NCBI GenBank assembly: GCA_015063885.1
Contig: SVTH01000008.1
Coordinates: 1-64,000 of the forward strand
Origin: Oscillospiraceae bacterium
GTDB taxonomy: Bacteria > Bacillota > Clostridia > Oscillospirales > CAG-382
Direction: 5' to 3'
DNA: 64,000 nucleotides
In this document: positions 921-48,576 of the stretch, one piece after another
Numbering within the stretch: the stretch's first letter is position 1
Layout: the number at the start of each line of letters is the position of its first letter
Position numbers and translations under genes: made by a program
The notes under the pieces: model-generated
The model's input: the letters and a program-made list of their open reading frames with translations, nothing else
What the model was told of the DNA's origin: nothing
Database searches by the model: none

Positions 921-1514
921 ATGGCGAAATTATATTTCAAATACGGTGCCATGGGTTCCTCGAAGACGGCTCAGGCGCTGATTACAAAGTTCAATTACGA
1001 AGAGCGGAGCATGAAGGTGTGGTTGATCAAGCCCGCCGTGGATACCCGCGATGGAGAGCAGACGGTGCGTTCACGCATCGGGCTGTTTGCGCCCTGCCAT
1101 GCGATAAAAGCCGAAGAAGATATTTTTTCGCTCTTTGAAAAAGAACATTCTCACGCAGACGTGATCATTGCGGATGAATGCCAATTTTTTACGGAGGCGC
1201 ACATTGATCAGCTGAGAAGGATCGTTGACGAAAAGAACATTCCCGTGATGTGCTTTGGGCTCCGGGCGGATTTTATGTGCCATTTATTTGAAGGCAGCAG
1301 GCGTCTTTTCGAGGTTGCGGATTCCATCGCGGAGATCAAGACCGTTTGTGCTTGCGGTGCCAAGGCCATCGTCAACGCCCGATTGGACGGGAATCTTCGC
1401 GTGGTTACCGACGGCGAGCAGGTGATGCTGGGCGGCAACGAAAGCTATGTTGCGTTGTGCCACAAGTGCTGGAAGAGAAAGATCAAGGCACAAAAGGAGG
1501 AAGTCCATGTTTGA
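921..1514 (+). CDS. tdk: Thymidine kinase (TK1 type)
   Basis: This enzyme phosphorylates thymidine to dTMP with ATP in the cytoplasm, the salvage route for DNA-derived nucleoside. The 197-residue protein has the P-loop GAMGSSKT (9-16), the DECQF segment with catalytic glutamate (85-89), the FGLRADF substrate loop (112-118) and four zinc cysteines (C143, C145, C180, C183). Length is normal for bacterial TK1. It is first in an operon with two DHH phosphoesterases and surE, and its last codons overlap the next start (1507). The grouping is consistent with salvage of short oligonucleotides and nucleosides. Confidence 0.96.
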   Translation: MAKLYFKYGAMGSSKTAQALITKFNYEERSMKVWLIKPAVDTRDGEQTVRSRIGLFAPCHAIKAEEDIFSLFEKEHSHADVIIADECQFFTEAHIDQLRRIVDEKNIPVMCFGLRADFMCHLFEGSRRLFEVADSIAEIKTVCACGAKAIVNARLDGNLRVVTDGEQVMLGGNESYVALCHKCWKRKIKAQKEEVHV

Positions 1515-2442
1515 GCAGATCAAAGCTCTCATTGAGCAATACCCCCGCATCGTGATCCACAGACACAAAAATCCCGACGGAGATGCGTTGGGAAGCCAGC
1601 TGGGACTTTGGAGCATTCTGAAAGAGAACTATCCCGACAAAGAGGTTTACATCGTTGGCGATATGACGCCCCGATATAGCTTTATCGCTTTTCGCGAGAT
1701 GGACGTGATCGAGGATGCGGTGTACGAGGATGCTTTGGCAATCGTTCTGGATACTTCGGCGAAGAGCTTGATCAGTGACGAACGGTATACCTTGGCGAAG
1801 GTCACAGCAAGGATCGACCATCACATTTTCGTGGAACAGATCGCTTCTTGCGAGGTGACGGATACCTCCTTTGAAAGCTGTTGCGGCATGATCGCGGCGT
1901 TGGCTATGGAGTGCTCCTGGGAGGTCTCCCCTGCAGCTGCAAAGGCGCTTTACACAGGCATGATCACGGATTCCGGACGGTTCCGCTACGATTCCACATC
2001 GGCACAGACCTTCCGTTTGGCATCCTTTCTGATGGAGCGTAAGTTCGACACCGGGGATATCTATCGCAATTTGTATGCGGACGATCTGTTTTTTATTCAG
2101 CTGCGGGCGAAGTTTGCCTTGAAGATCAACGCCTTGGAAAACGGTGTTGCATACATTTATACCGATTTTGAGGAAGCAGCCGGGTACGGTGCGGATTCCT
2201 TTACCTTATCCCGGGGGATGGTCAACGTGATGTCGGAGATCCGCGGGATCCACAGCTGGGTGAACTTTACGGAGACGGATGCGGGTGTACTTTGCGAGAT
2301 CCGCTCCAACTGTTATAACATAAACCCCATCGCGGTGAAATACGGCGGTGGGGGACATCAGAAGGCAAGCGGCGCTACCTTGAAGGATCGTGAAGAAGCC
2401 ATGGCTTTGTTACAGGATCTGTGCGCTCTCGGGGAGGATTGA
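1507..2442 (+). CDS. DHH/DHHA1 phosphoesterase, NrnA-type oligoribonuclease/pAp phosphatase (first of pair)
   Basis: The ATG at 1507 follows AAAGGAGG at 1493-1500. The longer in-frame extension upstream lies inside tdk and is rejected. The 311-residue protein has the DHH-family metal motifs: HRH (18-20), NPDGDA (22-27), LDT (81-83) and IDHH (103-106). It ends in a DHHA1 domain with YGGGGH near residue 282. NrnA enzymes degrade 2-5-nt RNA to mononucleotides and dephosphorylate pAp; some members cleave cyclic dinucleotide products such as pApA. It overlaps tdk by 8 bases and is followed after one base by a diverged paralogue. Which substrate it prefers cannot be told. Confidence 0.9.
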   Translation: MFEQIKALIEQYPRIVIHRHKNPDGDALGSQLGLWSILKENYPDKEVYIVGDMTPRYSFIAFREMDVIEDAVYEDALAIVLDTSAKSLISDERYTLAKVTARIDHHIFVEQIASCEVTDTSFESCCGMIAALAMECSWEVSPAAAKALYTGMITDSGRFRYDSTSAQTFRLASFLMERKFDTGDIYRNLYADDLFFIQLRAKFALKINALENGVAYIYTDFEEAAGYGADSFTLSRGMVNVMSEIRGIHSWVNFTETDAGVLCEIRSNCYNINPIAVKYGGGGHQKASGATLKDREEAMALLQDLCALGED

Positions 2443-2443
2443 G

Positions 2444-3424
2444 ATGAATCGACAGGTTATGAGAAACATTTTGGAAAAGATCCGCTCCTATCACAGGGTC
2501 ATCATCTTCAGGCATTTACGTCCCGACGGCGACGCTGTGGGGGCATCCAAGGGCTTGCGGGAGATCCTGAGGAGCAGTTTCCCCGAGAAGGAGATCTATC
2601 TGTTGAACTCCGATTATTCCGACTACGTTGCGTTTCTCGGCGGTGAGGATGAGGAGATCGATGAAAAGCTGTATGAGGATGCCTTGGGTATCGTCGTTGA
2701 TACCGCTACCTCTCAGAGAATCTCCAATCCCAAATTCGGCCTCTGCAAGGAGCTTATCAAGATCGATCATCATATTCCCACGGATGCCTACGGGGCTTTG
2801 GAATTGGTGGAGGAGGAACGGTCCTCCTGCTGTGAGTTGATAGCGTCGTTTTATCAGGCTTGTTCCGACGAGCTTGTGATGACAAAAGAAGCGGCCACCT
2901 ATCTGTATACCGGTATGGTGACGGATTCCGGGAGATTCCGTTTCCGTTCCGTCAGCGGTGACACCCTACGATTGGCGGGGATGCTTTTGGATCAAGGGGT
3001 TGACACGGAACAGCTTTACGCCAATCTTTACATGAAAGAATTTGATACCTTGAAGTTCCAGTCCTACGTGTATCAGACCATGGAGATCTCCGAAAACGGC
3101 GTGGCTTACGTGTACGTGGACCAAAAGACCCGGTTGCGTTTTGGGCTCTCCTTCGAAGAAGCTTGCGCTTGTGTGGGATATATGGATTCTATCAAGGGAA
3201 GTCTCATCTGGTTGGCGTTTATTGAAGGGACAGACGGCGTGATCCGCGTGCGGTTGCGTTCCAGATTCGTAACGATCAACGAATTGGCGGAAAGCTACGG
3301 AGGCGGAGGGCACGCCTGCGCCAGCGGATGCAACGTAAACGACAGAAAACAGATGCGGGAGCTGATCGGGAAGGCAGACGCCCTGCTGAAGGACTATAAA
3401 GAAAACAACGAGGGCTGGTTATGA
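2444..3424 (+). CDS. DHH/DHHA1 phosphoesterase, NrnA-type (second of pair)
   Basis: The ATG at 2444 starts two bases after the TGA of its paralogue, so translation is probably coupled. The 326-residue protein keeps all DHH motifs (H24, RPDGDAVG 26-33, VDT, IDHH 107-110, TDSGRFR) and the C-terminal YGGGGH of DHHA1. It is clearly diverged from the first copy. In place of HRHKNPDGD it has FRHLRPDGD. Two intact copies side by side suggest different substrates (for example nanoRNA versus pAp or cyclic-dinucleotide products) or a heteromer. The stop overlaps the surE start (ATGA). Confidence 0.9.
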   Translation: MNRQVMRNILEKIRSYHRVIIFRHLRPDGDAVGASKGLREILRSSFPEKEIYLLNSDYSDYVAFLGGEDEEIDEKLYEDALGIVVDTATSQRISNPKFGLCKELIKIDHHIPTDAYGALELVEEERSSCCELIASFYQACSDELVMTKEAATYLYTGMVTDSGRFRFRSVSGDTLRLAGMLLDQGVDTEQLYANLYMKEFDTLKFQSYVYQTMEISENGVAYVYVDQKTRLRFGLSFEEACACVGYMDSIKGSLIWLAFIEGTDGVIRVRLRSRFVTINELAESYGGGGHACASGCNVNDRKQMRELIGKADALLKDYKENNEGWL

Positions 3425-4148: not shown

Positions 4149-4175
4149 AGGAGCTTTCCATCACGGAAGGCTCCT
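4149..4175. terminator. Bidirectional terminator between surE and the ribonuclease lipoprotein gene
   Basis: AGGAGCTTTCC (4149-4159) pairs with GGAAGGCTCCT (4165-4175), with one G-T pair. The T-run is strong on the minus strand (AAAAAA at 4142-4147 on the plus) and weak on the plus strand. It separates two convergent genes. Confidence 0.85.
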
Positions 4176-4181
4176 TGTGTT

Positions 4182-5375
4182 TTATAGAAAGAAAAGGCTT
4201 TTGCGGGGATCCAAATAAAAGACGACTTGGGTTTTGGTCAGCAGGGACATCATAACCACGGGTACGTAAGGCGTGGGCGCAAAATCCGTTTTGCTGGAAA
4301 GTGTTCCGCCGCCGGTGATATTGCCGAAGGTCTCTCCCCAACCGCCGAAATAGTTGAGGTACTCCGTAAAATCGTTGTAATGGTTATAGGTGTAGAAAAG
4401 GTATTTTTCGTTGGGATCGATGATCTCGTTTTTATTGGCGTCGTAACGGGTGTAAACGATCCTTGCGGCACCTCGGGTGATGGTCTTACCGTCGTTATAG
4501 AGCTTGACGGGATATGCAGGATCACAATCGGTTCCTGTTGTGCCGATATCCAGCTCGTAATAGTACAGGTTACCCCCGCATCCGCTGATATCGGGAAGCT
4601 CCGGCTCGTAGGGATATTTCTCCGTGTTGCCGCTGAATTTGGTATGATTGAGACGGAGATTTTCTCCCCAAATGCTGTCTTCCGGCTCCGTACGCTTGCT
4701 CTCGGTATAATTGGCCGGGACGTCACCAAAAGCGTAGACGTAGGCGGCAACCTCTTCCAGGGTGATATATCCTCCGCCGCGGTAGACGCGGAAGACCTCC
4801 AGGCCGAAGGCGTTCACCACCACGTAAGTGTTGCTGTCGGCGTAATAGGGCGTATTGTTGCGGATATAGGCACCGTCTTTCATGGGACGGTAGGTGGACA
4901 GCTCAGGAGCCTGGTCGGGAACGGTCTCCGCGCCCGAAAGCTCCCCTTTTGCTGAGCGCCGAAGAGCCTCCTCGTAGCTGTCTGCAGGGTCGCTCTCTCC
5001 ATAGAAGGCGTCTCTTGCGGCCTCGTCCACCCCGGAATGATCTATGGACAGCTCTTCCACCACCTTGATGAGCACGGTGGCGCTGAGATCTCCGTACCGC
5101 ACCGTGACGGCCGAGGAGCCGAGAGAAAGGGCTGTTACCAAACCGTTGGGATCCACAGTGAGACAGCTTCCGCTGGAATCCCAGGACAGGAGCGGTCTTA
5201 CGTCTTCAGGGGCGTTGGTCTGCAATTGGAAGGTGGCACCGACGAGGAGCTCCGTTCTGTCGCAATTGGTGATCTCCAGGGACGTAAGAGGCTGAGGCGA
5301 ATCGCATCCCCAGCTTGAAAGGAGAACGAGCAACGTCAGAAGCAGAATTCCACATCTGCGGAAGATATTGGACAT
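4182..5375 (-). CDS. Secreted lipoprotein with Big2-like domain and barnase-type ribonuclease domain
   Basis: The 397-residue protein starts at the ATG behind GAAGGTG. It has a hydrophobic signal ending near C24 (SSWGC, a weak lipobox), an immunoglobulin-like Big2 domain at about 30-108 and an acidic linker. Residues about 203-341 match barnase. ITLEEVAAYV...VPANY corresponds to the first helices. YYYELDI carries the general base E274, RGAARIVYT the phosphate-binding arginines R301/R305, and YNHYNDF the catalytic H332. Barnase-family enzymes cut single-stranded RNA, often after G. Two loops are longer than in barnase and there is a 55-residue C-terminal extension. No barstar-like inhibitor gene is seen in the window. 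Its own promoter and flanking terminators make it a single-gene unit beside the nuclease/ABC operon. Confidence 0.8.
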   Translation of the reverse strand: MSNIFRRCGILLLTLLVLLSSWGCDSPQPLTSLEITNCDRTELLVGATFQLQTNAPEDVRPLLSWDSSGSCLTVDPNGLVTALSLGSSAVTVRYGDLSATVLIKVVEELSIDHSGVDEAARDAFYGESDPADSYEEALRRSAKGELSGAETVPDQAPELSTYRPMKDGAYIRNNTPYYADSNTYVVVNAFGLEVFRVYRGGGYITLEEVAAYVYAFGDVPANYTESKRTEPEDSIWGENLRLNHTKFSGNTEKYPYEPELPDISGCGGNLYYYELDIGTTGTDCDPAYPVKLYNDGKTITRGAARIVYTRYDANKNEIIDPNEKYLFYTYNHYNDFTEYLNYFGGWGETFGNITGGGTLSSKTDFAPTPYVPVVMMSLLTKTQVVFYLDPRKSLFFL

Positions 5376-5404
5376 CAGAGCACCTTCTTTCTGAATTTTA
5401 GGAT

Positions 5405-5433
5405 ATTTTAACACATCGAAGCAACAGAGTCAA
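5405..5433 (-). promoter_or_regulatory. Promoter of the ribonuclease lipoprotein gene
   Basis: TTGACT (5428-5433) and TAAAAT (5405-5410) on the minus strand are 17 bases apart, 30 bases before the start codon. Confidence 0.85.
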
Positions 5434-5479: not shown

Positions 5480-7630
5480 TTACTTCGTGAAAGTACAGCC
5501 GCTGGTGAATTCAATGGTGCCGTTGTAGTTGGTAAGAATGCCGGAAACGGTGATGGTATCGCCGACCTGCAAAGCATCGGCGCCATTGCCTTTCAAACGG
5601 TAGCAGACGATGGGTTTATCCTCGCAGCCTTCGATGGTGATGGTTACGGTGATGTTCTTGTACTGCTCGCTGTAGGGAGTGCCGATCTCGGTGATCTTGC
5701 CGGTGAGGGTATAGGTGTGTCCTGCGGAAAGGGTCTCCTGGTTGCCAAGAGCGTAAGCCGCATTCACGATCGCCTCGGGAGACTCGTAGATCTCTACTTC
5801 AACGTCACCAACCTCGAAAGAATCCAAGGAACAACCTGCGTCGAACTCAACAGTACCGTTGTAGTTCTTGATCTTACCGGTAACGGTGATGGTATCGCCG
5901 ATCTTGATGGTATCGGCGCCGTCACCCTTCAAGCGGTAGCACAGGATGGGTTTATCCTCCAGGCCTTCAATGATGATGAACACGGAGACGTTCTTGAAAT
6001 TGGAGTCATAGGGGGTCTGCACGGAGGAGATCACGCCGGTGAGAGTGAACTCAGCGCCATCTGCAAGGAAGGTATCTTTTTCCAAGGCATATGCGGCATT
6101 CACGATCTTCTCGGGAGTATCCAAAACGGGTTCTTCGGGAGTGTCGGGCTCATCGGGCTCGTCGGGAGTGGTGGGAACAAGAGCTTTGATCTCACAGCCT
6201 GCGTTCATCTGCACCTTGCCGTCGTAATTGAGGATGACGCCTTCGACGGTAACGGCATCGCCGGCCTTGATCAAGTCGGCACCTTCGCCCTTCAAGCGGA
6301 AGAGCTGGATGGTCTTATCGGTGCCGTCCACCGTAATGGTGACGGTAACGTTCTTGTACTGCTCGCTGTAAGCGGTATCCACGGAGACCACCACGCCGGA
6401 AAGGGTGTACTTGTGGCCGTCGGAAAGCTTTTCGCTGCTCTTCAAGGCGTAAGCAGCGTCCATGATCTCCTGAGCGGTCTCGTAGATCACAGGCTCATCG
6501 GGCTCCTCTACGGGAGGCTCGGAGGGTTCATCGGGTTCATCCACAGGAGGCTCGGAGGGTTCGTCGGGTTCATCCACGGGAGGCTCGGAAGGATCGTCGG
6601 GCTCCTCCACGGGAGGCTTTTCGGTCAAGGTGTAGGAATCCAGGGTGCAACCGCTGTCAAACTCAACCTTCTCGTTATAATTCTTAATCACACCGGTAAC
6701 GGTAACGGTATCGCCAACGCCGATGAGATCGGCGCCATCGCCCTTCAGGCGGAAGCACTGGATGGGCTTATCGGTCATGCCGTCCACTACGATGGTAACG
6801 GTAACGTTACCATAATCGGAGCTGAAAGCGGAATCTACGGAAGAGATCACGCCGGTCAGGGTATAGCGATGGCCTGCGGAAAGGGTCTCGCCGGACGCCA
6901 GCTCATAGGCGGCCTTGAGGATCTCTGCAGGAGTCTCGTAGATCACTACCTCGAAGTCATCGCCGGGGGTGTAGGAATCCAAAGTACAGCCTGCGTCAAA
7001 CTCGATCTTACCGTTGTAGTTCTTGATCACACCGGTAACGGTGATGGTATCGCCCGCCTTGATGGCATCTGCGCCCTCGCCCTTCAAACGGAAGCACTGG
7101 ATGGGCTTATCGGTCATGTCGCCCACAACGATGGTAACGGTAACGTTGCCGTACTGCTCGCTGTACGCGGTGTCCACGACGGTGATCAGGCCGGTGAGGG
7201 TGTAGGGGTTTCCTGCGGAAAGGGTAGCGCCGCTTTCCAGAGCGTATGCTGCGTTCAGGATCGCTTCGGGCGTATCGTAGATCTCAACGTCGAAGCCTTC
7301 TCCCGCTTCGTAGGAATCAAGGGTACAGCCCGCATCGAACTCCACGGTGCCGTTGTAGTTCTTCAAAATACCGGAAACGGTGATGGTATCGCCCGCCTTG
7401 ATAGCGTCGGCGCCATCGCCCTTCAGACGGTAACACTGGATGGGCTTGTCGGTCATGTCGCCCACAACGATGGTAACGGTAACGTTGCCGTACTGCTCGC
7501 TGTATGCGGAATCGATAGAGATGATCTGACCGGTCAAGGTATAAACGTGAGCGGCGGAGAGGACCATGCCGCTTTCCAGCTCGTAAACGGCATTGACGAT
7601 CTCTTCGGGAGTTTCATAGATCACAACGTC
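5480..7630 (-). repeat. Six tandem ~320-bp coding repeats
   Basis: The six domains of the lipoprotein are repeated at DNA level. Segments near 7120-7170 and 7460-7510 are almost identical, and the others are diverged. Approximate spans are 7290-7630, 6960-7290, 6630-6960, 6180-6490, 5800-6130 and 5480-5800, with linkers at about 6490-6625 and 6130-6180. The pattern indicates internal duplication with recent homogenisation of the first three units. Confidence 0.85.
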
Positions 7631-8512
7631 GTCCACGGAGGGCTTGTTAGTCTCGGCAGTTTCCTTCAGGATCAGGCCTGCGGGGAACTGGGAAACGCCG
7701 CTGTTTTCTGCGTTGATATAAGAAGACTCGGAGATGCAGAAGGTGTTGTAGGAGGAGTAGGTGCCCACTACGTATTCGCCGCCTTCCACGACGGTGCACC
7801 AAGCGTTCTCGGCGGTCTTATAATACCAAACGGAGCCTGCGTCTGCGCTGTAGTTCAGGTACTTGCTTACCTTGCCGTCATCGGAGGTAACGGTAGAAGC
7901 GGTAACGTAGTTCTTGATATCGCCTACCATGGTGTAGAACTTGTAGCCGTCCTCAGCCTTCTCTGCGAAGAAGTCGGGGGCTTCTGCAGGATCGTTGGTA
8001 GACTTGATAAACTTATTGTCCTGGAGCTCGTGAGTAGCGTACAGAGTCTGTGCCAGGTTGGCCTGGACCAGGTAGAACTTGTATGCCACGCCTTCTTCGG
8101 GCTGGGCAACGATGTTGGAGTTATCCACGATGGGAACGATGCGCTCGTAGGTCTTGGTCTGGGTCTCCCCTGCCGCATTCTTAACGGTTGCGGTCAGCTT
8201 GTAGGGGATCTCCTCCTCGGTCTTGGAGGGGACGTCAACCGTCCAGAAGCCGGCCTTGGCGCTTTCCTTAATGGTAATCAGCTCGTTATCGGTTTCCCAG
8301 GTTACGGTAAACTCGGTGGTACCGATCAACAGCTTTCCAACTACGTCGTAGTCGGTGGGAGTGGAGTTGGCGGCATCCTTATACAGGTTGTGCAGATAGG
8401 TGACAGCCTGGGCAAGGGTGGCGCCTTCTTCTGCGGGAGCGTCATCGGAGCATGCCGCAAAGCAGCCCATGCAGAGGATCAGCCCCAAAAGAAGTGCAAG
8501 GATCTTTTTCAT
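5480..8512 (-). CDS. Large lipoprotein with six OB-like repeat domains
   Basis: The 1010-residue precursor has a signal peptide with lipobox FAAC (C21). Next come an Ig-like region (about 25-125), a unique region (about 130-285) and six related domains of about 100 residues each from residue 294 to the end. Each carries the pattern YxTPExIxNAAYxL, YTLTGxI, NVTVTI, KPIxCYRLKG, GDTITVxGxIKNYNG, FDAGCTL. The beta-rich pattern with ITVxGxIxNYNG resembles the OB-fold domains attached to secreted nucleases such as YhcR, so nucleic-acid binding is likely but inferred. A Pro/Glu/Asp-rich linker of tandem EPSEPP units separates repeats 3 and 4, and a shorter one separates 4 and 5. It is last in the operon with a thermonuclease-like lipoprotein and an ABC importer. 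Confidence 0.75.
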   Translation of the reverse strand: MKKILALLLGLILCMGCFAACSDDAPAEEGATLAQAVTYLHNLYKDAANSTPTDYDVVGKLLIGTTEFTVTWETDNELITIKESAKAGFWTVDVPSKTEEEIPYKLTATVKNAAGETQTKTYERIVPIVDNSNIVAQPEEGVAYKFYLVQANLAQTLYATHELQDNKFIKSTNDPAEAPDFFAEKAEDGYKFYTMVGDIKNYVTASTVTSDDGKVSKYLNYSADAGSVWYYKTAENAWCTVVEGGEYVVGTYSSYNTFCISESSYINAENSGVSQFPAGLILKETAETNKPSVDDVVIYETPEEIVNAVYELESGMVLSAAHVYTLTGQIISIDSAYSEQYGNVTVTIVVGDMTDKPIQCYRLKGDGADAIKAGDTITVSGILKNYNGTVEFDAGCTLDSYEAGEGFDVEIYDTPEAILNAAYALESGATLSAGNPYTLTGLITVVDTAYSEQYGNVTVTIVVGDMTDKPIQCFRLKGEGADAIKAGDTITVTGVIKNYNGKIEFDAGCTLDSYTPGDDFEVVIYETPAEILKAAYELASGETLSAGHRYTLTGVISSVDSAFSSDYGNVTVTIVVDGMTDKPIQCFRLKGDGADLIGVGDTVTVTGVIKNYNEKVEFDSGCTLDSYTLTEKPPVEEPDDPSEPPVDEPDEPSEPPVDEPDEPSEPPVEEPDEPVIYETAQEIMDAAYALKSSEKLSDGHKYTLSGVVVSVDTAYSEQYKNVTVTITVDGTDKTIQLFRLKGEGADLIKAGDAVTVEGVILNYDGKVQMNAGCEIKALVPTTPDEPDEPDTPEEPVLDTPEKIVNAAYALEKDTFLADGAEFTLTGVISSVQTPYDSNFKNVSVFIIIEGLEDKPILCYRLKGDGADTIKIGDTITVTGKIKNYNGTVEFDAGCSLDSFEVGDVEVEIYESPEAIVNAAYALGNQETLSAGHTYTLTGKITEIGTPYSEQYKNITVTITIEGCEDKPIVCYRLKGNGADALQVGDTITVSGILTNYNGTIEFTSGCTFTK

Positions 8513-8548: not shown

Positions 8549-9874
8549 TTAGGAAACGGTTACGTCGTTGACGGAGAACAGTTTGACTTGGTATTCTCCG
8601 TTGAAATAATCGATCAGTCCCTTGACGGAAATGGTCTTGCCCCGGAAATAGGACTCGGTGATCAGATTTCCTTCTCCGTCGTACAAAACGATGGTGCGGA
8701 CAGTGAAGGTCCGGTCCCCAACCTTACAGGTCAAGGACATGGCGCCCTTGGAGGCGCTTTCTTCGTTGGAGGTGGTATACACGTCCACCACCTGCAGACC
8801 CTCCATGGAAACGGAGGTATAGATGGCAAGCTCCGCAAAACGGAAGGACTTGACCTCCTCCCCTACCGTAACGGAAACGGATTCCGTCAACAGCTGTGCG
8901 GGAGTGATGGCAACGTATGCGGGTTGGTGTCCATCGCTGATCTTTTGGATATTGGAGGGATCGTCAGGATTCATCAGGGAATACTCCAAGCCGGAGACCT
9001 GGTAGGTATTTCCCGTTTCGTAATACTGAACGGTGCCCACGATGCGGACACGGTTGCCCACGGAAAGGATCTCCAGGCCTGCGCCGTTGAGGCTGTAGCC
9101 GTAATAGACCTGCATGCCGTAGTAGAGATCCGTTTCGGGATCGTATTCCTCGATATAGACGGTATTACTGTTATTTTTAGTAATCACGCCTTCAAAGGCC
9201 ACCTTGGTATTGTCGTAGGAGGTGACGTTGAGGCGGAGCTCCTTCAGAGTCAGCTCCTGGGCTTCGCCGTAGGGGAAGTTGGGATCCTTTGCCCCGGAAT
9301 GGACGTGGAGCTTTTCCGACTTGGCCTGGTTAATGGCCGCCATACAGGTCTCGCCGTAGCGGTTGTTGGCGGAATTGGAGGCAATGGCCAGCCCCTCCTG
9401 GAGGATCTCGATGTTCAGATTCCGATAGGTCTCGGAACCGGCCTCGCGATACCACACCCAAACCAGGTAACGGTCTCCCGTAGAATCGGCGTTCCATTTT
9501 CCGTCGTCGGATTCCACGATGATGGAGGTGGCGTTTTGAAGCTTGAATTTGGTATAATTGGAGGCGGCTTTGCCCCACTCTTCGATCTTACCGGTAGACT
9601 CGGGGGTATTGATGGCAAGGTATCTCGCCTTCAAGACACCGCCGGGCATAACGGAAGCAGGAACGTGGAAATGGGTAGTATCGCCGTCGATATAGGATTT
9701 TACGGTGACCTCCTGCTTCAACGTGGGAGCGCCGTTGTCAAGGGTAACGGATGCGGCGTAGTCCACGTGGTTGTTTTCCGGTGTCTCTTCTGCGGGAGTG
9801 CAGGAAACCAGCACGGAAAGCAGGAGAAGAAGCGCCGTCAGACAGCAGGAAAGCTTCTTAAATCTGTGTTTCAT
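8549..9874 (-). CDS. Thermonuclease-like (SNase) lipoprotein with C-terminal OB-like domains
   Basis: The 441-residue precursor has a lipobox LVSC (C25). Residues about 52-200 form a staphylococcal-nuclease domain: YIDGDT (61-66, metal ligands D63/D65), ARYLAINTPES (R84 and E92 equivalent to R35 and E43 of S. aureus nuclease) and GDRYLVWVW (R135 equivalent to R87). The residue matching the calcium ligand D40 is N89. About 210-441 contain two beta-rich segments like the OB domains found in YhcR-type nucleases. Such enzymes cut DNA and RNA outside the cell. It lies 5 bases after the binding-protein gene and upstream of the OB-repeat lipoprotein in the same operon. Confidence 0.88.
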   Translation of the reverse strand: MKHRFKKLSCCLTALLLLLSVLVSCTPAEETPENNHVDYAASVTLDNGAPTLKQEVTVKSYIDGDTTHFHVPASVMPGGVLKARYLAINTPESTGKIEEWGKAASNYTKFKLQNATSIIVESDDGKWNADSTGDRYLVWVWYREAGSETYRNLNIEILQEGLAIASNSANNRYGETCMAAINQAKSEKLHVHSGAKDPNFPYGEAQELTLKELRLNVTSYDNTKVAFEGVITKNNSNTVYIEEYDPETDLYYGMQVYYGYSLNGAGLEILSVGNRVRIVGTVQYYETGNTYQVSGLEYSLMNPDDPSNIQKISDGHQPAYVAITPAQLLTESVSVTVGEEVKSFRFAELAIYTSVSMEGLQVVDVYTTSNEESASKGAMSLTCKVGDRTFTVRTIVLYDGEGNLITESYFRGKTISVKGLIDYFNGEYQVKLFSVNDVTVS

Positions 9875-9879: not shown

Positions 9880-11322
9880 TCAGTTACCTGCCTGATACTT
9901 ACACTCGGCAACTGCGTCCTCGAAGGCCTTCTTGATCTGAGCTTCTGCGTCTGCACCCCAATCGGAGGACAGGCACTTCTGCATCAGCAGACCGACCTGG
10001 TCGCGAGCGGTGGAAGAGCCGTTGAAGGCGGGAGAGGTATAGTAAGCCTTCTCCTGCTCAAGGCAGATCTTGGCGCTGAGAGCGGAGATATAGTCGCCGC
10101 CGTCTGCCAGATCCAGGAAGCTGCCCTTGTAGATCTCATTGTCGCCTACGGACTTGATAACGGGAACGTAGCCGGACGCCATGGAGAATTCAGCCTGGAA
10201 TTCTACGGTGGTGCAAAGGTACTTCACGAACAGCCAGGATGCCATGACCTCCTGAGGATCGTTCTTCTTGAAGATACAGAGAGAGGGACCCTGAGAGATT
10301 ACCTTGGGAGCATCGGCATTCAGCTGAGGAATGGTGGCAATGCCAACCTCGAAGGGATAGGATTCGTTGACCTTATCGGGACGCTGGTGGGTTGCACCTG
10401 CGGAGGAACCGATGGACATGTAGCTGTTACCTGCCTCGGACTCTGCCTTGGTGAACAGCTCGGAGGTATAACCGCCGGAAAGCTCCTGGGTGGTTACGTA
10501 ACCCTTCTGATACCAATCTCTGAAGCGGGCAACGAAGGCACGGTTGGTCTCGTTATCGAAGAGGAAGAGGTCGTCACCGGTGGCGGAGGTATAGGCGGAG
10601 CCGGACTGCTCGCACATGGTGATGAACCAGTTGGACTCGGAGTCGTAGCCCAAGGGGATGGAGTCGGGATCGATCTCCTTGATCTGCTTGCAAACGGCTT
10701 CCAGCTCGTCCCAGGTGGTGGGAACCTTGATGCCGTGCTTATCGAAGAAGGTCTTGTTGTAGTACAGAACCTCGGTGGACTTGGAAAGAGGCATGGTGTA
10801 CATCTTACCGTCGCCAAACTGCTTGCCTTCCTCGTAGTAGCCCTTGATGAAGTCTGCGATCTGCTCGTCGGTGAGACCCAGGATGTCCTTGGAGCCGTCG
10901 GCTCTGGTGATCTCCAGGTCACTGGCAATGAGGGTATCCAGAGTGGTTACTGCCTGCGCCAGGTTGTAAAGAGCAACGTGGTCGGGATAGCAGTATGCGA
11001 TGTTGGGCTGGTTGCCGACGGTGATCTCGGTCTTGATCTGATCCCGAACGTCGTCGTAGCCGCCAACCTGCTCGTGCTGGACGGTGATGTTAGGATAAAG
11101 CTCGTTGAACTTTACGATGTAGCGATCCAGAACGTCGCGCAGGTTTGCACCCATGGTGTGGTAAAAGGTGATGGTGACGGGCTTGGAGGTGTCAAAGCCG
11201 CCCTCGGAGATGACGAAATCAGCGGCAACTCCGCCGTTGGAACCGCATCCTGCGAAAGCAAACACGCCAAGAAGCATGGTCACTGCCAAAAGGAGGGAAA
11301 CGAGGATTCTCTGTGTTTTCAC
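9880..11322 (-). CDS. ABC importer substrate-binding lipoprotein (family 1, CUT1 type)
   Basis: The 480-residue precursor has a lipobox FAGC (C26) and the opening VTITFYHTMG typical of carbohydrate-type binding proteins related to UgpB and MalE. Later family features include STEVLYYNKTFFDKHG, VPTTWDELEAVCKQ and a C-terminal helix-rich lobe. It delivers ligand to the two permeases encoded immediately upstream. Ligand cannot be deduced. The classical family binds sugars, oligosaccharides or glycerol-phosphate compounds, but co-transcription with secreted nucleases raises nucleosides, sugar phosphates or nucleotide products as candidates. Confidence 0.9.
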   Translation of the reverse strand: MKTQRILVSLLLAVTMLLGVFAFAGCGSNGGVAADFVISEGGFDTSKPVTITFYHTMGANLRDVLDRYIVKFNELYPNITVQHEQVGGYDDVRDQIKTEITVGNQPNIAYCYPDHVALYNLAQAVTTLDTLIASDLEITRADGSKDILGLTDEQIADFIKGYYEEGKQFGDGKMYTMPLSKSTEVLYYNKTFFDKHGIKVPTTWDELEAVCKQIKEIDPDSIPLGYDSESNWFITMCEQSGSAYTSATGDDLFLFDNETNRAFVARFRDWYQKGYVTTQELSGGYTSELFTKAESEAGNSYMSIGSSAGATHQRPDKVNESYPFEVGIATIPQLNADAPKVISQGPSLCIFKKNDPQEVMASWLFVKYLCTTVEFQAEFSMASGYVPVIKSVGDNEIYKGSFLDLADGGDYISALSAKICLEQEKAYYTSPAFNGSSTARDQVGLLMQKCLSSDWGADAEAQIKKAFEDAVAECKYQAGN

Positions 11323-11358: not shown

Positions 11359-12246
11359 TTAACCCTTGATACCGCTGCGGGAAACGCCCTTCATGATGTA
11401 CTTCCGCAGGAAGATGAACACCAGGAACAAAGGCAGAGAGACGATGGCTACCGCCGCCATCTGCACGGGGATGTTGACGTCTCCGGTGGAATCCGTAAAG
11501 GCGTTACGCAGACCGTTGGTGATCAGCTGGTACTTCTCGTCGTTGGCGACCAAGCGGGGCCACACGTAGGAGTTCCAGGCGCCCATCATTTTCAGGATGG
11601 TGATGGAGATGAGGGTGGGAAGCGCCAGAGGGATCATCACCTTCCACAGATACTTCAAATCACCGGTCCCGTCCACCTTGGCGGCCAGGTACAGCTCGTT
11701 GGGGATCTGCAGGAAGTTCTGCCTCAGCAGATAAATGTAGAACACGCTCACCAGGAAAGGTACGATCAGTACCGTATAAGAATCCATCCAGCCGAAGCTG
11801 TTGACCGTGGAGTAGTTAGTGATGGTGAACAGCTCACCGGGGATCATCATAGTCGCCAACAAAGCGGCGAACAGAGCGTTTTTACCGCGGAATTCCAATC
11901 TCGCAAAAGCAAAGGCGGAAAGAACGGTAATCACCAGAGAAAGCAAGGTGGAGACCAAGCCCACGTACAGGGTGTTCATAAACAGCCTGCCTAAGTTTGC
12001 CTGGTTAAAGGCGTCTACGTAGTTGCTCCAGAGGATCTCCTTGGGGAACAGAGTGGGAACGGACAGACGGTATTCGTCAATGGACTTCACGGAGGAGATC
12101 AGCATCCAATAGAAGGGGAACAGCACGATCAACGCCATGACGATCAGGAACAGGTAGACCCAAAATTTAGCAAAAAACTTTGCAACCGTCTGATGGGAGG
12201 AGACCTTTTGCAGGTCTTTGGCGTGCATGGTTTTGTTTTCTGACAT
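11359..12246 (-). CDS. CUT1 ABC transporter permease (MalG/UgpE-like)
   Basis: This 295-residue protein has six membrane segments and the cytoplasmic EAA loop, seen as LYLAAKVDGTGDLKYLWKV, which docks on the ATPase. It pairs with the permease encoded 12 bases upstream to form the channel. N- and C-terminal extensions are short, as usual in this subfamily. It lies between the first permease and the binding lipoprotein in the operon. Confidence 0.94.
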   Translation of the reverse strand: MSENKTMHAKDLQKVSSHQTVAKFFAKFWVYLFLIVMALIVLFPFYWMLISSVKSIDEYRLSVPTLFPKEILWSNYVDAFNQANLGRLFMNTLYVGLVSTLLSLVITVLSAFAFARLEFRGKNALFAALLATMMIPGELFTITNYSTVNSFGWMDSYTVLIVPFLVSVFYIYLLRQNFLQIPNELYLAAKVDGTGDLKYLWKVMIPLALPTLISITILKMMGAWNSYVWPRLVANDEKYQLITNGLRNAFTDSTGDVNIPVQMAAVAIVSLPLFLVFIFLRKYIMKGVSRSGIKG

Positions 12247-12258: not shown

Positions 12259-13200
12259 TTAATAATGGGTCTTCTTTTTGCTGACGTACAGGTTGATCAT
12301 GGTCACCACGAAAATGATGCCGAAGAGGATCAACGCTGCCGCACTCGCTCTTCCCTGCTGGGTGGAAAGAGAATCGTAGATAAAGCCCACCATGGTATTC
12401 AGACGGCCGGCATCCCCTGCGGGGCCCATGTGCTCGCCGAAGATACCGACGATGGAGGAATACTCCTTGAAGCCGCCGATGAAGCCCGTGATGACCACGT
12501 AAGCCAGCATGGGAGACAAGAGAGGAACCGTGATCTTGGTGAAGACTCTTCTGCGGCTGGTGCCGTCAACGCGGGCGGCATCGTAATACTGCTTGTTGAT
12601 GCTCTGCAAGCCGCCCAGAAGGATCAGGATCTTAAAGGGCAGGGCGTTCCACACGATGTACACCACCATAACGGTGATATTGGCGGCGTAGGTGGAGCCT
12701 GCGTTGATCCAGTTCACGGCGGAGCCGCCGAAAAACTCGATGACGTTGTTGATGATGCCCGCCGTAACGACGATCTCGTTCTCTCCTCCGAAGGCGGAGC
12801 CAACCATGTTGAACATGGCGGCAAACACCATGCCGATGGCGATGGAGTTGGTTACGTAGGGCAGGAAGAAAACGGTCTGCAAAAAACGCTGCAAAGGCTT
12901 GATCGCGTTCAGACAGACTGCGATCAAAAGGGCAAGGAACGTAGACAGCGGTACTGTAAGCACCGTCAGCAGCATGGTGTTGCCCAAGCAATCCAAAAAG
13001 GCGTTGTATTCCAGCACCTGCTTAAAATTTCCGATGCCGAAGTTGTATACCTTACCGCCCACAACGGCCATGCTGTTGTAGTTTTCCAAAAACGCCATGC
13101 GGACGGTGTTGATAATGGGCCAAACGGTGAAGATCAGAAGTAGAATGATGGCAGGCGAAAGGTAAAGCCACGCCTTCCATTTATGTTTGCTTTCAACCAT
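12259..13200 (-). CDS. CUT1 ABC transporter permease (MalF/UgpA-like)
   Basis: This 313-residue inner-membrane protein starts with a short cytoplasmic tail followed by WLYLSPAIILLLIF, typical of UgpA/LacF-type permeases. It has about six membrane helices and an EAA loop (YYDAARVDGTSRRRVFTK). Spacing of 13 bases from the ATPase gene and 12 from the next permease indicates one transcript. Confidence 0.94.
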   Translation of the reverse strand: MVESKHKWKAWLYLSPAIILLLIFTVWPIINTVRMAFLENYNSMAVVGGKVYNFGIGNFKQVLEYNAFLDCLGNTMLLTVLTVPLSTFLALLIAVCLNAIKPLQRFLQTVFFLPYVTNSIAIGMVFAAMFNMVGSAFGGENEIVVTAGIINNVIEFFGGSAVNWINAGSTYAANITVMVVYIVWNALPFKILILLGGLQSINKQYYDAARVDGTSRRRVFTKITVPLLSPMLAYVVITGFIGGFKEYSSIVGIFGEHMGPAGDAGRLNTMVGFIYDSLSTQQGRASAAALILFGIIFVVTMINLYVSKKKTHY

Positions 13201-13213: not shown

Positions 13214-14305
13214 TCAAAAGCGGATGCGGGTCTCGTCCTCGGCGGAGAACAGGAAGACCTTATGAGGCTTGAGGGAATAGCGGACGGTCTCCCCTGCGGA
13301 AACCTTGTTATCCGCATCAATGATGGCGCGAATCACGGGAGAAACGGCGTTTTCATGGCGGCAGACGACGCTGACGTCGCGGCCCATGACCTCCACGCTG
13401 TTCAAGCCGCAGACCAGAGGACCGTTTTCATCCAGGATGAAGCCCTCGGGGCGGATGCCCACCGTTACGTCCCTGTCCTCTACGCCGGGAACGTCCAGTA
13501 CGGGAGAATCGCCGATGTACAGCTTCCCGCCCGAAACTTTGCCGGAGAAGACGTTGATGGGAGGCGTGCCGAGGAATTTGGCGACGAACAGGTTGGTAGG
13601 ATCGTCGTAGACCTCCTGGGGCTTGCCGATCTGCTGGACAACGCCCAGCTTCATCACAACGATGAGGTCGGAGATGCTCATAGCCTCTTCCTGGTCGTGG
13701 GTAACGAAGATAGTGGTGATGCCGGTATCCTTCTGAATACGGCGGATCTCCTCGCGGGTCTGAAGACGGAGACGGGCATCCAGGTTGGAAAGAGGCTCGT
13801 CCAAGAGAAGCACCTTGGGCATCTTTACAAGAGCACGGGCGATGGCAACTCTCTGCTGCTGGCCGCCGGAAAGCTCGCTGGGTTTTCTGTCCATCAGGTC
13901 GTCGATCTGCACCAGCTTTGCGGCCTCGTAGGCACGCTCGATCATCTTCTCCTTGGGCAGTCTGTCCTCCCCTTTCAAATTCTGCAAGGGGAACAGGATG
14001 TTCTGCTTTACCGTCATGTGGGGATACAGAGCGTAGTTCTGGAACACGAGACCAACGCCGCGGTTTTCCGCAGACAGCTCGGTCACGTCGTCGTCACCGA
14101 AGAAGATCTTACCGCCGGAGGGCTTCTGCAAGCCGCTGATCATGTACAGCGTAGTACTTTTGCCGCAACCGGAGGGACCCAAAAGCCCCACCAGCTTACC
14201 GTCGGGGATCTCGAAGGTGAAGTCGTTGACGGCAATTACTTCCTGGTTGGATTTCTTGCCGCGCCCGGGGAAAATTTTTGTCAGGTTCTGCAAAAGAATT
14301 TTCAT
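13214..14305 (-). CDS. ABC transporter ATPase (MsmK/UgpC family)
   Basis: The 363-residue protein has Walker [10 protein letters not shown] (43-51), the signature LSGGQQQR, Walker [13 protein letters not shown], and a C-terminal TOBE/MOP-type domain of about 120 residues as in sugar-type importers. It powers the two permeases encoded just downstream. Its start overlaps the stop of the RDD gene (ATGA), so it is translationally coupled. Having its own ATPase argues that this importer does not depend on a shared MsmK elsewhere. Confidence 0.95.
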
Positions 14306-44008: not shown

Positions 44009-44920
44009 TTAACCTTCGAAAAACGCTTCGATGAACTCGGTGCCATTGAAGGTCTGCAAGTCGTCAATGCCTTCGCCCACGCCGATGAACTTCACGGGGA
44101 TGCCCAGCTCACGCTTGATAGCCAGGACGATGCCGCCCTTGGCGGTGCCGTCCAGCTTGGTGAGCACCAAACCGGTAATATCGGCGGCCTTGCGGAATTC
44201 CTTAGCCTGTACCAATGCGTTCTGACCGGTGGAAGCATCCAGCACCAGCAAGGTATCTCTGGTGGCCTCGGGAAGCTCCCGGGAGATGACGCGGTTGATC
44301 TTGGCAAGCTCGTCGATGAGGTTTTTCTTGTTGTGCAGTCTGCCTGCGGTATCTACGATGAGGACGTCCACACCCTGCTTTCTTGCGGCGCCTGCGGCGT
44401 CAAACACAACGGCTGCAGGGTCTGCCCCCTCTTTCTGCTTGATGAGGGGGACGCCGCTTCTGTTCGCCCAAACCTCCAGCTGTTCGATGGCGGCTGCACG
44501 GAAGGTATCTGCGGCGCAAAGCATGACCTTCTTGCCCTGCTGTTTGAGGCAGTTGGCGATCTTGCCGATGGATGTGGTCTTACCCACGCCGTTGACGCCG
44601 ATGACCAAGATCACCGAAACGCCGCTCTCCCCAAGAGTCAGGGGGGCGCCCTCACCTACCAGCTCCCGCAGGATGGCGCGGAATTCTTCTCTGGCAGGCT
44701 CGGTCTCCTTGATCTTCTTTTCCTTCAGACGCTCTCTCAGGGTGTCTGCGATATACTCGGAGGTGTCTACCCCAACGTCCGCCATGATCAGCAGGTCGGT
44801 AAGCTCCTCGAAAAAGTCGTCGTCCACTTTATCACCGGAGGCAAACAACATATCCACCGGTTTCAAAAGGGCGTCCTTGGTCTTCTTCAGACCGGATTTC
44901 AGTTTATCAAAAAATCCCAT
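44009..44920 (-). CDS. ftsY: Signal recognition particle receptor FtsY
   Basis: The 303-residue protein is the NG core without the acidic A domain. It has GVNGVGKTTSIGK (108-120), DTFRAAAIEQL, VDTAGRLHNK and GTAKGGIVLAI. It docks SRP-ribosome complexes at the membrane. Its ATG overlaps the smc stop (TAATG); smc-ftsY order is conserved. Confidence 0.97.
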   Translation of the reverse strand: MGFFDKLKSGLKKTKDALLKPVDMLFASGDKVDDDFFEELTDLLIMADVGVDTSEYIADTLRERLKEKKIKETEPAREEFRAILRELVGEGAPLTLGESGVSVILVIGVNGVGKTTSIGKIANCLKQQGKKVMLCAADTFRAAAIEQLEVWANRSGVPLIKQKEGADPAAVVFDAAGAARKQGVDVLIVDTAGRLHNKKNLIDELAKINRVISRELPEATRDTLLVLDASTGQNALVQAKEFRKAADITGLVLTKLDGTAKGGIVLAIKRELGIPVKFIGVGEGIDDLQTFNGTEFIEAFFEG

Positions 44921-47900: not shown

Positions 47901-48576
47901 CCAGAGGCTTTACGCGGGAAGCCACCTCCTGGAGGATATCGGTAACGCGCAACAGGTTGTTTTCCGTATCGGCAAGCTTCCGTTCCGCCTCGGTCTTGCG
48001 GTAGCGGAAACGGGAGATGCCTGCGGCTTCCTCAAAAATACTGCGGCGTTCATCGCCCTTTTGAGAAAGCACCTCGGCGATCTTGCCCTGGCTGATGACG
48101 GAATAGCCTTCTCTGCCGATACCGGTATCGTAAAACATCTCGTAGATGTCCTTCAAGCGGGACAGCTTGCGGTTGATGTAGTATTCACTCTCGCCGCTAC
48201 GGTAATATTTACGGGTGATCACCGTTTCGGGAGAATCGGAAAGGCGGGGCTTTTCGTCGGCGGAGACTTCCTCCTCCATGTCCAGGGTCAGCTGGTGGGT
48301 GGAGCGGTACTCCTCCTCGGAATCAATGTACAGAGAAACGGAAGCGCAATTGGAGGCGGGACGAGTGGGCGTACCGTTGAAAATAACGTCGTCCATCTTG
48401 GAGCCGCGCAAGCTCTTCATGCTCATTTCGCCCAATACCCAACGCACGGCGTCGGAGATGTTGGATTTACCGCTTCCGTTAGGACCGATGATGGCGGTAA
48501 CACCTTGCTCGAAGGTGATCTTGGTTTTATCGGGGAACGATTTGAACCCCTGCATTTCCACAGCTTTTAATCGCAT
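44920..48576 (-). CDS. smc: Chromosome segregation ATPase SMC
   Basis: This 1218-residue protein is full length. It has Walker A GPNGSGKS (31-38), two long coiled coils around a glycine-rich hinge (GPVSNILSAENEY to GKVV-type region near 550-690), signature LSGGEQSFAAIAL and Walker B ICIFDEIESALDD-like segment near the end. It is the core of the ScpAB condensin. The ScpA and ScpB genes are not in the window. Confidence 0.97.
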   Translation of the reverse strand: MRLKAVEMQGFKSFPDKTKITFEQGVTAIIGPNGSGKSNISDAVRWVLGEMSMKSLRGSKMDDVIFNGTPTRPASNCASVSLYIDSEEEYRSTHQLTLDMEEEVSADEKPRLSDSPETVITRKYYRSGESEYYINRKLSRLKDIYEMFYDTGIGREGYSVISQGKIAEVLSQKGDERRSIFEEAAGISRFRYRKTEAERKLADTENNLLRVTDILQEVASRVKPLEKEAENAKQYLVLSEEKKGLEITLWLNRLDDLREKRNLGEEGLTHAQNALEQAQLAETTLEKELDDQLNESYEFARLMSLTEQEKSVSERIKAEAEGEKAVCLNDLQHYEQIVSDSNCEIAESEQRSAVIAKQITATEQEITASKEAVLEAETDSAAKETAWQAAREKVAALTKEAEDAEQTLTLARQALSDLNMAEAALSAELEAAKKSDSESEERISAGKERIASLEAVCKEKEAVRDILEAEYMETLTAIKEKREQIRTDSAEEAKLREEAVSLRLKLTAAEQRRESLQRMEQLFEGYSESVRSILKDGAAGKIRRNGGANVVLHGPVSNILSAENEYVVALETALAASVQFVVVESAEDAKACIRYLKDHHIGRATFLPLDTVKGSLCDVSKIKNMEGYVGIASQLARFEEKFRGVANDLLGRTVIADHIDNATKIASATGYKVKIVTLDGQVIHPGGSFTGGAAAKKVGVFTRAMDIERLSGEIRELNMALLELDRKASRRKRSVEENEAAANELELLSAEQKARYDEAENEINGYLVRMEEELSHIRSIENGKNADSDGRRSLEERLQAVQKGLDVRNQAVLTAEEKNRTCKKQVEDARLAESASYEALSQARIIVVSKRSYTDSLSASLTQQTAQLTGIMDRIATLRVAVASAQNSITERGNRIAVVEEKIAAACKGIAAGDAKLAELVGSREAQENKLSEIRRLHKEAQQKREDAFVRVTNEENNFRRLNEDFDTVTAKLWDEYELTYSDAEAFRLPEEQMEKAPSRLASLKAKIRSMGVINVNAVEEYRQTKERYDFLSAQVEDLQKTRRSLDGTISKLETEMKESFVSTFKQINESFARVFVELFGGGSARIELQDPENPLECGIDIILKPPGKSVKSISLLSGGEQSFAAIALYLALQSVNPAPFCIFDEIESALDDINLNKFADYIRSHSEKTQYIVITHRRGTMERADTLYGVTMHQKGISDYIRLSLSGLEENFKEYTN

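What the first reader, a model, noticed from the sequence alone, without database searches (positions are those of the whole stretch)
5480..7630. Array of six OB-like domains with near-identical DNA segments
Units 1-3 share long near-identical stretches (for example around 7120-7170 and 7460-7510), whereas units 4-6 are more diverged. This suggests recent expansion or gene conversion. A Pro/Asp/Glu linker of repeated EPSEPP type sits between units 3 and 4. Repeat number may vary between strains, changing reach or avidity of a surface binding protein.
Basis: seen in the sequence. Interest (0 to 1): 0.5.

Follow-up and report, generated by a model that had tools for sequence, protein, structure and literature searches.

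The report
DNA/RNA-scavenging operon with OB-fold array
The repeats are six nucleic-acid-binding-type domains in one surface protein of a bacterium, and that protein is the regular partner of a gene set that looks built to catch, cut, import and finish digesting DNA and RNA from the surroundings; repeat number does differ between related species.

Summary
In detail: gene 5480-8512 (-), 1010 aa, is a lipoprotein with six OB-fold units and a 33-bp-period Pro/Glu/Asp linker between units 3 and 4. "Near-identical" is overstated: units 1-3 are 73-79% identical in DNA; only one 56-nt stretch (units 1/2) is exact. Units 1 and 2 are not recent: against a sister species, 30 sites follow orthology and 2 within-genome likeness. 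Number varies: full orthologs have 6, 4 and 2 units, and the 4-unit gene holds a unit 2/3 mosaic. The larger result is the setting. The array gene follows a staphylococcal-nuclease-type lipoprotein gene and an ABC importer operon, with SurE and two NrnA-like genes beside it. In 63 genomes of the family, the nuclease, SurE, the NrnA pair and the close binding protein occur in the same 9; OB units of this type in 8 of those 9 and 1 of the other 54. Importer, nuclease and array also stand together in Lachnospiraceae, a Sphaerochaetaceae and a Bacilli MAG. I read it as a nucleic-acid utilisation locus in which the array holds polymer at the surface. Import of still-phosphorylated oligonucleotides is inferred, not shown.

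The parts
5480..8512 (-). OB-array lipoprotein gene, 1010 aa
   Evidence: ORF; PF01336 67.5 bits; lipobox ending at Cys21
8450..8512 (-). signal peptide with lipobox
   Evidence: pattern match in 15 of 16 proteins in this slot; the Sphaerochaetaceae one lacks it
8123..8440 (-). Ig-like region (about aa 25-130)
   Evidence: weak PF20578 aBig_2, 17.3 bits, below cut-off 27; boundaries approximate; structure model failed
7619..8122 (-). middle domain (about aa 131-298), fold unknown
   Evidence: conserved in G010 and G146, matched twice in the G033 slot protein; no Pfam hit over cut-off
7316..7618 (-). OB unit 1
6977..7276 (-). OB unit 2
   Evidence: structure model pLDDT 98
6638..6940 (-). OB unit 3
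6495..6618 (-). Pro/Glu/Asp linker, 33-nt period
6185..6484 (-). OB unit 4
   Evidence: no counterpart in G010
5822..6121 (-). OB unit 5
   Evidence: ortholog of G010 unit 3
5486..5785 (-). OB unit 6
   Evidence: ortholog of G010 unit 4
7449..7504 (-). 56-nt stretch of unit 1 identical to 7110-7165 of unit 2
   Evidence: coordinates by arithmetic
4182..5414 (-). lipoprotein with Ig-like and barnase-type ribonuclease-like domain
   Evidence: PF00545 E 8e-4, 20.3 bits, below cut-off 24: tentative
8549..9874 (-). staphylococcal-nuclease-type lipoprotein (TNase)
   Evidence: PF00565 36.1 bits, cut-off 21; Arg84, Glu92, Arg135 invariant in 10 of 10
9880..11322 (-). ABC importer solute-binding lipoprotein
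   Evidence: PF13416/PF01547; lipobox by reading
11359..12246 (-). ABC permease
   Evidence: ORF, conserved neighbour; family by reading, not scanned
12259..13200 (-). ABC permease
   Evidence: ORF, conserved neighbour; family by reading, not scanned
13214..14305 (-). ABC ATPase
   Evidence: PF00005
14302..15123 (-). RDD-family membrane protein, first gene of the run
   Evidence: PF06271
3421..4143 (+). SurE nucleotidase
   Evidence: PF01975 163.4 bits; in the same 9 of 63 genomes as the TNase
2435..3424 (+). NrnA-like DHH/DHHA1 phosphoesterase 2
1507..2442 (+). NrnA-like DHH/DHHA1 phosphoesterase 1
921..1514 (+). thymidine kinase
   Evidence: PF00265; beside the cluster in 3 of 16 loci only
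4149..4175 (.). terminator-like hairpin between the convergent runs
   Evidence: consensus match only

Best explanation
The array is the polymer-capturing lipoprotein of a nucleic-acid utilisation locus. Proposed working: the tethered OB units hold DNA or RNA strands at the cell surface; the SNase-type lipoprotein, in some lineages with a second secreted nuclease, cuts them there; the solute-binding lipoprotein and the two-permease/one-ATPase importer take up short fragments that still carry phosphate; in the cytoplasm the two NrnA-like enzymes cut 2-5-mers to mononucleotides and SurE removes phosphate, feeding salvage. Shown: domain content, gene order, co-inheritance, variable OB number. Inferred: that the OB units bind nucleic acid, what the importer carries, and all activities. 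Units are gained and lost by recombination between repeats, perhaps tuning reach or avidity.
For: Operon-like run on one strand, spacing -4 to 65 nt. In 15 of 16 clusters (window plus 15) the gene after the TNase encodes OB units of this type (one of the 15, L067, was missed by the automatic adjacency filter because its ORFs overlap by 77 nt; another, G016, has a single unit); 5 of those loci were found by searching with the TNase, not the array. In 63 family genomes TNase (E <= 1e-30), SurE (E <= 1e-20), the extra NrnA pair (E <= 2.1e-50) and the close SBP (46% identity or more; others 37% or less) occur in the same 9, scattered over four genera (3 of 24, 3 of 5, 2 of 4, 1 of 1); OB units in 8 of those 9 and 1 of 54 others (Fisher 2e-8, uncorrected for kinship). 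A second secreted nuclease-type protein, of differing family, beside the array in window, G010, L040, L036 and L069. TNase catalytic residues kept 10 of 10. Unit model matches the anticodon-binding OB of LysRS over residues 3-106 (Z 10.0, rmsd 2.9, 96 aligned); Foldseek also lists RPA, SSB, POT1. No secreted 5'-nucleotidase among the locus proteins scanned, and PF02872 was not detected in 6 of 9 carriers, the window's genome included.
Against: Units are acidic (mean net charge -6.5 over 59 units, four of them held twice, range -12 to +2; whole window protein about -100), so binding cannot rest on bulk charge. The same OB type occurs outside the nuclease setting: in F5/8C and dockerin paralogues of the window's genome and G010, in G159, which lacks the TNase, and in L045 with no TNase in the 10.7 kb held. 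G033 has the cluster with no OB unit of this type (its slot protein has DUF5689). L034, L044 and L071 leave no room for a second nuclease between array and SurE, and the window's ribonuclease-like protein has a near-full match only in G010 among 40 genomes. SurE is not found beside the NrnA pair in L041 and L043. PF02872 is not less common in carriers (3 of 9 against 19 of 54, p 1.0), several carriers are incomplete assemblies, and other extracellular phosphatases were not searched. The SBP's best NCBIfam match is the glycerol-3-phosphate binder UgpB (E 7.6e-17, below cut-off) and its relatives of known structure are mostly sugar binders. SurE/NrnA are in a convergent run, not in the same operon.
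Confidence: 0.68

Rival explanations
1. Same locus, but dephosphorylation happens outside and the importer carries nucleosides or nucleobases; SurE and NrnA only serve general turnover. This is the reading given for the transporters of Izemoplasmatales loci.
For: Wasmund et al. 2021 (PMC8289736, section 11 read) call the transporters probable nucleoside or nucleobase transporters and state that membranes are impermeable to nucleotides; 3 of 9 carriers have a PF02872 protein.
Against: SurE and the extra NrnA pair, neither with a signal sequence by reading, are present in 9 of 9 TNase carriers and 0 of 54 others, which general turnover does not explain; PF02872 not detected in 6 of 9 carriers.
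Confidence: 0.3
2. The OB units are general surface adhesion modules that bind glycan, protein or each other; nucleic acid is not their ligand.
For: OB-type paralogues carry dockerin and F5/8 type C domains; units strongly acidic; OB folds bind many ligand types (general knowledge).
Against: Tight association with the TNase operon: 15 of 16 clusters and 8 of 9 carriers against 1 of 54 non-carriers. Best structural neighbours are nucleic-acid-binding OB folds, though a shared fold shows no function.
Confidence: 0.2
3. The array is a spacer or scaffold that positions nuclease and binding protein in the cell wall; unit number sets reach only.
For: Unit number varies 0-7 in this slot and the linker is proline-rich and variable.
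Against: Tyr45, Asn47, Arg66 and Tyr90 (numbering of unit 2) are kept in 90% or more of 35 units from distant taxa, more than a spacer should need.
Confidence: 0.15
4. The 6-against-4 difference is an assembly artefact in one genome.
For: Both are draft assemblies (22 and about 80 contigs); the mosaic unit of G010 could arise by misjoining.
Against: Longest exact match between window units 2 and 3 is 30 nt, short for misjoining; the linker also differs; a third ortholog has 2 units.
Confidence: 0.07

Closest known systems
Mycoplasma SNase-ABC operon (MAG_5040 with MAG_5030/P80 and MAG_5050-5070, M. agalactiae; PMC3585158, abstract and passages)
   Same: SNase-type lipoprotein, solute-binding lipoprotein, ATPase and two permeases together; proposed to import nucleic-acid precursors. 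The window SBP has a weak match to the P68 family of surface lipoproteins (E 8e-8, below cut-off).
   Different: The term OB-fold does not occur in that paper's text; here SurE and a tandem NrnA-like pair are co-inherited.
Putative DNA-degradation loci of Candidatus Izemoplasmatales (PMC8289736, section 11 and passages)
   Same: Several secreted nucleases, 3'-5' nucleases, phosphohydrolases and ABC transporters in one locus.
   Different: [quoted passage not shown] no OB-repeat lipoprotein is mentioned in the parts read; hosts there are from marine sediment.
Hujiaoplasma nucleasis nucleic acid-degradation locus (PMC10470597, passages)
   Same: Extracellular ribonuclease, NrnA and ABC transporters; many of its genes upregulated on DNA and RNA.
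   Different: Passages also name a nucleoid-associated protein and RecR; no SNase, OB array or SurE is named in them.
Mycoplasma bovis tandem NrnA pair Mbov_0328/0327 (PMC7373297, abstract and passages)
   Same: Two NrnA-type enzymes degrading nanoRNA to mononucleotides, needed in cell culture and bypassed by nucleotides.
   Different: The passages seen do not link the pair to a nuclease-ABC operon.
B. subtilis YhcR and ExeM/NucH secreted nucleases (architecture recalled; ExeM_NucH matches below cut-off)
   Same: OB-fold domains joined to secreted nucleases.
   Different: Here the OB domains form a separate array protein without a recognised nuclease domain.

Membership tests
PF01336 OB-fold nucleic acid binding domain | Profile score above cut-off and OB fold | tested here: met
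   67.5 bits against 27; model pLDDT 98 with six strands, LysRS OB Z 10.0, rmsd 2.9, 96 aligned
PF01336 OB-fold nucleic acid binding domain | Binds nucleic acid | not testable with these tools
   needs a binding assay
Staphylococcal nuclease (PF00565) | Profile score and catalytic Arg/Glu/Arg | tested here: met
   36.1 bits against 21; Arg84, Glu92, Arg135 invariant 10 of 10; their equivalence to Arg35/Glu43/Arg87 of the staphylococcal enzyme is recalled; the recalled Asp40 place reads Asn here
Barnase-type ribonuclease (PF00545) | Profile score above cut-off | tested here: not met
   20.3 bits against 24; called ribonuclease-like only
NrnA (NF053633) | Equivalog score above cut-off | tested here: not met
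   246.8 and 232.0 bits against 350; DHH and DHHA1 domains both over Pfam cut-offs: NrnA-like
SurE (PF01975) | Profile score above cut-off | tested here: met
   163.4 bits against 22.1
Mycoplasma SNase-ABC operon | SNase lipoprotein gene next to SBP, ATPase and two permeases | tested here: met
   family of the permeases by reading
Mycoplasma SNase-ABC operon | One polycistronic transcript | not testable with these tools
   needs RNA
Izemoplasmatales DNA-degradation locus | Several secreted nucleases with ABC transporter and 3'-5' nucleases/phosphohydrolases | tested here: met
   SNase-type protein, a ribonuclease-like protein below cut-off, ABC genes, NrnA-like and SurE proteins; in L040, L036 and L069 a second nuclease over cut-off
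Izemoplasmatales DNA-degradation locus | Phosphate ABC transporter and lamin-tail nuclease protein in the locus | tested here: inconclusive
   not among the 9 proteins nor the 10 ORFs (up to 28,668); other ORFs were not scanned; so 'works like', not filed as a member

The most novel reading that the evidence does not exclude
A transferable nucleic-acid utilisation system of gut anaerobes, the counterpart of a polysaccharide utilisation locus: a variable OB-fold array captures polymer, interchangeable secreted nucleases cut it, and a sugar-type ABC importer takes up short oligonucleotides still carrying phosphate, which a dedicated cytoplasmic NrnA-NrnA-SurE set finishes. That would be an importer class for nano-oligonucleotides, against the rule that nucleotides must lose phosphate before uptake.
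Probability: 0.4. Interest if true: 0.77.

Novelty: new variant of a known kind. Interest (0 to 1): 0.56.

Why it matters
Gut contents are rich in DNA and RNA from food, host and microbes (general knowledge), yet loci dedicated to eating them are described, in what I found, for Mollicutes and marine Izemoplasmatales. A patchy, co-inherited module in Clostridia, Lachnospiraceae, a Sphaerochaetaceae and a Bacilli MAG, several of them from animal guts by record title (sheep rectum, horse feces, roe deer cecum), would name the genes to look for, give the OB array a concrete role, and make one question directly testable: whether ABC importers carry phosphorylated oligonucleotides into bacteria.

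Tried and rejected
Recent duplication of units 1/2: rejected on orthology of sites and dS.

Near-identity from gene conversion in the window gene: only weak permutation signals. A conversion-like tract is clear only in G010 unit 2.

Structure of aa 25-298: model failed (mean pLDDT 34.9, alignment of two rows); nothing is concluded from it. The Foldseek search of the unit gave no match at E <= 0.001, so the fold claim rests on VIA-align, Pfam and the strand order; Z around 9-10 is only modestly above the background of 7-8 stated.

Viral contigs: no relative found. Rfam: only a tRNA at 396-468. Promoter scan at chance level (6 found, 6.4 expected); terminator-like sites 15 against 9.7.

PDB search with the ribonuclease-like protein found matches to its Ig-like region only.

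Extracellular dephosphorylation: the PF02872 search neither supports nor excludes it strongly; other phosphatase families not searched.

Breadth: TNase profile 4 of 147 in the order sample and 1 of 398 (own) in the phylum sample at E <= 1e-30, so the module is rare. The genomes of these samples are unnamed, so how many Lachnospiraceae they held is unknown.

Second nuclease: looked for only in the window, G010, L040, L036 and L069; L041, L043, L046, L068 and L070 were not scanned for it.

Rows dropped: OB counts use units over 40 bits; weaker hits in L034, L038, L041, L043, L046, L067, in the TNases of window and L031, and in a further protein of L068, L069 and L070 were left out. L039 duplicates L031 and is counted once. 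L045 and the paralogue loci L005, L032, L033, L035, L037 are not among the 16 clusters because no TNase was found in them. Four of the 16 loci (L038, L042, L067, L068) show no NrnA; each stretch ends at a contig end. Of these, G016, G581 and G570 have the NrnA pair and SurE on another contig, so adjacency there is unproven.

Claims that something is not in print rest: an open-licence library, of which I saw listings, passages and one section; supplementary files were not readable. Masukagami 2013 (MslA, a polynucleotide-binding mycoplasma lipoprotein) was seen only as a title in reference lists. The paper on mhp379 (PMC1855908) is not held.

Full report
What is there. The minus-strand ORF 5480-8512 encodes 1010 aa with a lipobox ending at Cys21, an Ig-like region (weak aBig_2, below cut-off), a middle domain of unknown fold, and six units of about 103 aa starting at aa 299, 412, 525, 677, 797 and 909. 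A linker with four PPV[DE]EPD motifs and a 33-nt DNA period lies between units 3 and 4. The units belong to PF01336 (67.5 bits, cut-off 27). A model of unit 2, built with 34 other units from the window and named loci, has mean pLDDT 98 and aligns over residues 3-106 with the anticodon-binding OB domain of LysRS (Z 10.0, rmsd 2.9 A, 96 aligned); Foldseek also lists RPA, SSB and POT1, but no match at E <= 0.001.

How alike the units are. DNA identity is 79% (1/2), 77% (2/3), 73% (1/3), and 61-70% for the pairs that involve units 4-6; NG86 dS is 0.64-0.88 within units 1-3. The longest exact in-register run is 56 nt between units 1 and 2, at 7449-7504 and 7110-7165 (coordinates by arithmetic).

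Age and exchange. Its units 1, 3 and 4 are the orthologs of window units 1, 5 and 6 (96, 92 and 85% protein identity). Across window units 1/2 and G010 units 1/2, 30 sites show the orthologous pattern and 2 the within-genome pattern, so the duplication is older than the split. G010 unit 2 is a mosaic: nt 187-270 resemble window unit 3 (14 sites against 2), the rest unit 2 (37 against 8), and no permutation of 20,000 reached the observed clustering. G010 lacks unit 4 and has seven linker motifs instead of four. A third ortholog, G146, from another family of the order, keeps the N-terminal region (phmmer E 1.9e-126) and has two units. Number is constant in two other genera: 4, 4, 4 and 3, 3.

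The setting. The array gene is the seventh in a run of eight on one strand, spaced by -4 to 65 nt: RDD protein, ATPase, permease, permease, solute-binding lipoprotein, SNase-type lipoprotein, OB array, ribonuclease-like lipoprotein (permeases and the lipoboxes other than the array's by reading). Convergent to it lie thymidine kinase, two NrnA-like genes and SurE, with a terminator-like hairpin between. The SNase-type protein keeps Arg84, Glu92 and Arg135 in 10 of 10 sequences. The ribonuclease-like domain is below the Pfam cut-off and stays tentative.

Conservation of the set. The protein encoded next to the TNase has OB units of this type in 15 of 16; the exception, G033, has a DUF5689 match and two matches to the window's middle domain there. 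L067 counts among the 15 by its coordinates, although the filter missed it. Unit numbers in that gene: 6 window, 4 G010, 2 G146, 3 G032, 3 G581, 4 G570, 4 G172, 4 G571, 1 G016, 0 G033, 4 Agathobacter, 3, 3 and 4 Lachnospiraceae, 3 Sphaerochaetaceae, 7 Bacilli. The NrnA pair lies nearby in 12 of 16 and SurE in 10 of 16; the four without NrnA, the Sphaerochaetaceae one among them, end at a contig end, and L041 and L043 have the pair without SurE. In the Bacilli locus importer, nuclease, array, NrnA pair and SurE run in one direction. A second secreted nuclease-type protein stands beside the array in five loci, of differing family: ribonuclease-like (window, G010), Endonuclea_NS_2 (L040, L036), Endonuclease_1 (L069). 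L034, L044 and L071 have no room for one between array and SurE, and the other loci were not scanned.

Co-inheritance. Of 63 genomes of the family, 9 have the TNase at E <= 1e-30; the same 9 and no other have SurE at E <= 1e-20, the two extra NrnA-like genes at E <= 2.1e-50 (of the other 54 genomes, 46 have one distant relative, 3 have two and 5 none), and an SBP at 46% identity or more (the others at most 37%). OB units are found in 8 of the 9 and in 1 of the other 54, G159. Fisher tests give 4e-11 for SurE and 2e-8 for OB units; they ignore kinship, but the carriers are scattered, 3 of 24, 3 of 5, 2 of 4 and 1 of 1 in four genera. Wider sampling found the TNase in 4 of 147 genomes of the order (own included) and only in the own genome among 398 of the phylum. 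The TNase of G146, from another family, is closer to the window's (69%) than those of three other same-family loci outside its sister species (G032 60%, G033 61%, G172 57%) and of same-genus G016 (31%), which suggests transfer of the locus, though no tree of it was made.

Reading. The regular partners are surface nucleases, an importer, and enzymes without signal sequence (by reading) that are expected to finish short oligonucleotides and remove phosphate. I infer a nucleic-acid utilisation locus with the OB array as capture module. SurE and NrnA inside the cell, and no PF02872 detected in 6 of 9 carriers, favour import of phosphorylated fragments over nucleosides. This last step is the weakest: 3 carriers do have PF02872, its frequency is no lower than in non-carriers, some carriers are incomplete, and other phosphatases were not searched.

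Against it. The units are acidic (mean -6.5); the type also occurs in dockerin and F5/8C proteins of the window's genome and G010, and in a genome and a contig without the TNase. So the module is not tied to nucleases alone. The binding protein's best curated match is the glycerol-3-phosphate binder UgpB, below cut-off.

Known relatives. Mycoplasmas have an SNase-ABC-lipoprotein operon thought to import nucleic-acid precursors (PMC3585158, abstract and passages) and, in M. bovis, an NrnA pair needed for nucleotide supply in cell culture (PMC7373297, abstract and passages). Izemoplasmatales have DNA-degradation loci, described in 2021 as, to the authors' knowledge, not known in other microorganisms (PMC8289736, passages and section 11), and Hujiaoplasma has a locus with extracellular ribonuclease, NrnA and ABC genes, many of its genes upregulated on DNA and RNA (PMC10470597, passages). 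The locus here works like these and adds the OB array and SurE; whether it also has the phosphate transporter and lamin-tail nuclease of the Izemoplasmatales loci is not settled, so I do not file it as one of them. I rate it a new variant of a known kind.

Noticed in passing
L005:5648-9031 (own genome, contig C16): Paralogue with five OB units, F5/8 type C domains (two stretches) and a dockerin; 1188-nt tandem duplication, 1156 nt at 99% identity: a more recent repeat expansion than the one in the window.
   Followed up: partly
L005:9200-12298: Next to that paralogue, a large secreted protein that by reading looks like a glycerophosphodiester phosphodiesterase with a dockerin; not scanned.
   Followed up: no
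L036:7420-9726: In G033 the array slot holds a lipoprotein without OB units of this type but with a DUF5689 match and two matches to the window protein's middle domain.
   Followed up: partly
L036:9932-12415; L069:13764-15623; L040:12246-13586: The second secreted nuclease beside the array belongs to different families in different lineages, as if exchanged like a cassette.
   Followed up: partly
L040:14232-15977: Agathobacter MAG has a second OB-array gene (three units) in the same cluster, with a C-terminal membrane segment by reading.
   Followed up: no
L071 (G146): Locus from another family of the order is closer to the window's than three same-family loci are (TNase 69% against 57-61%), suggesting transfer of the cluster.
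   Followed up: partly
L068:11825-14221, L069:11269-13692, L070:5464-7740: A large protein after the array with only weak OB-profile hits and no Pfam match over cut-off; unknown function.
   Followed up: partly
window 44920-48576: ORF of 1218 aa on the minus strand, not examined.
   Followed up: no
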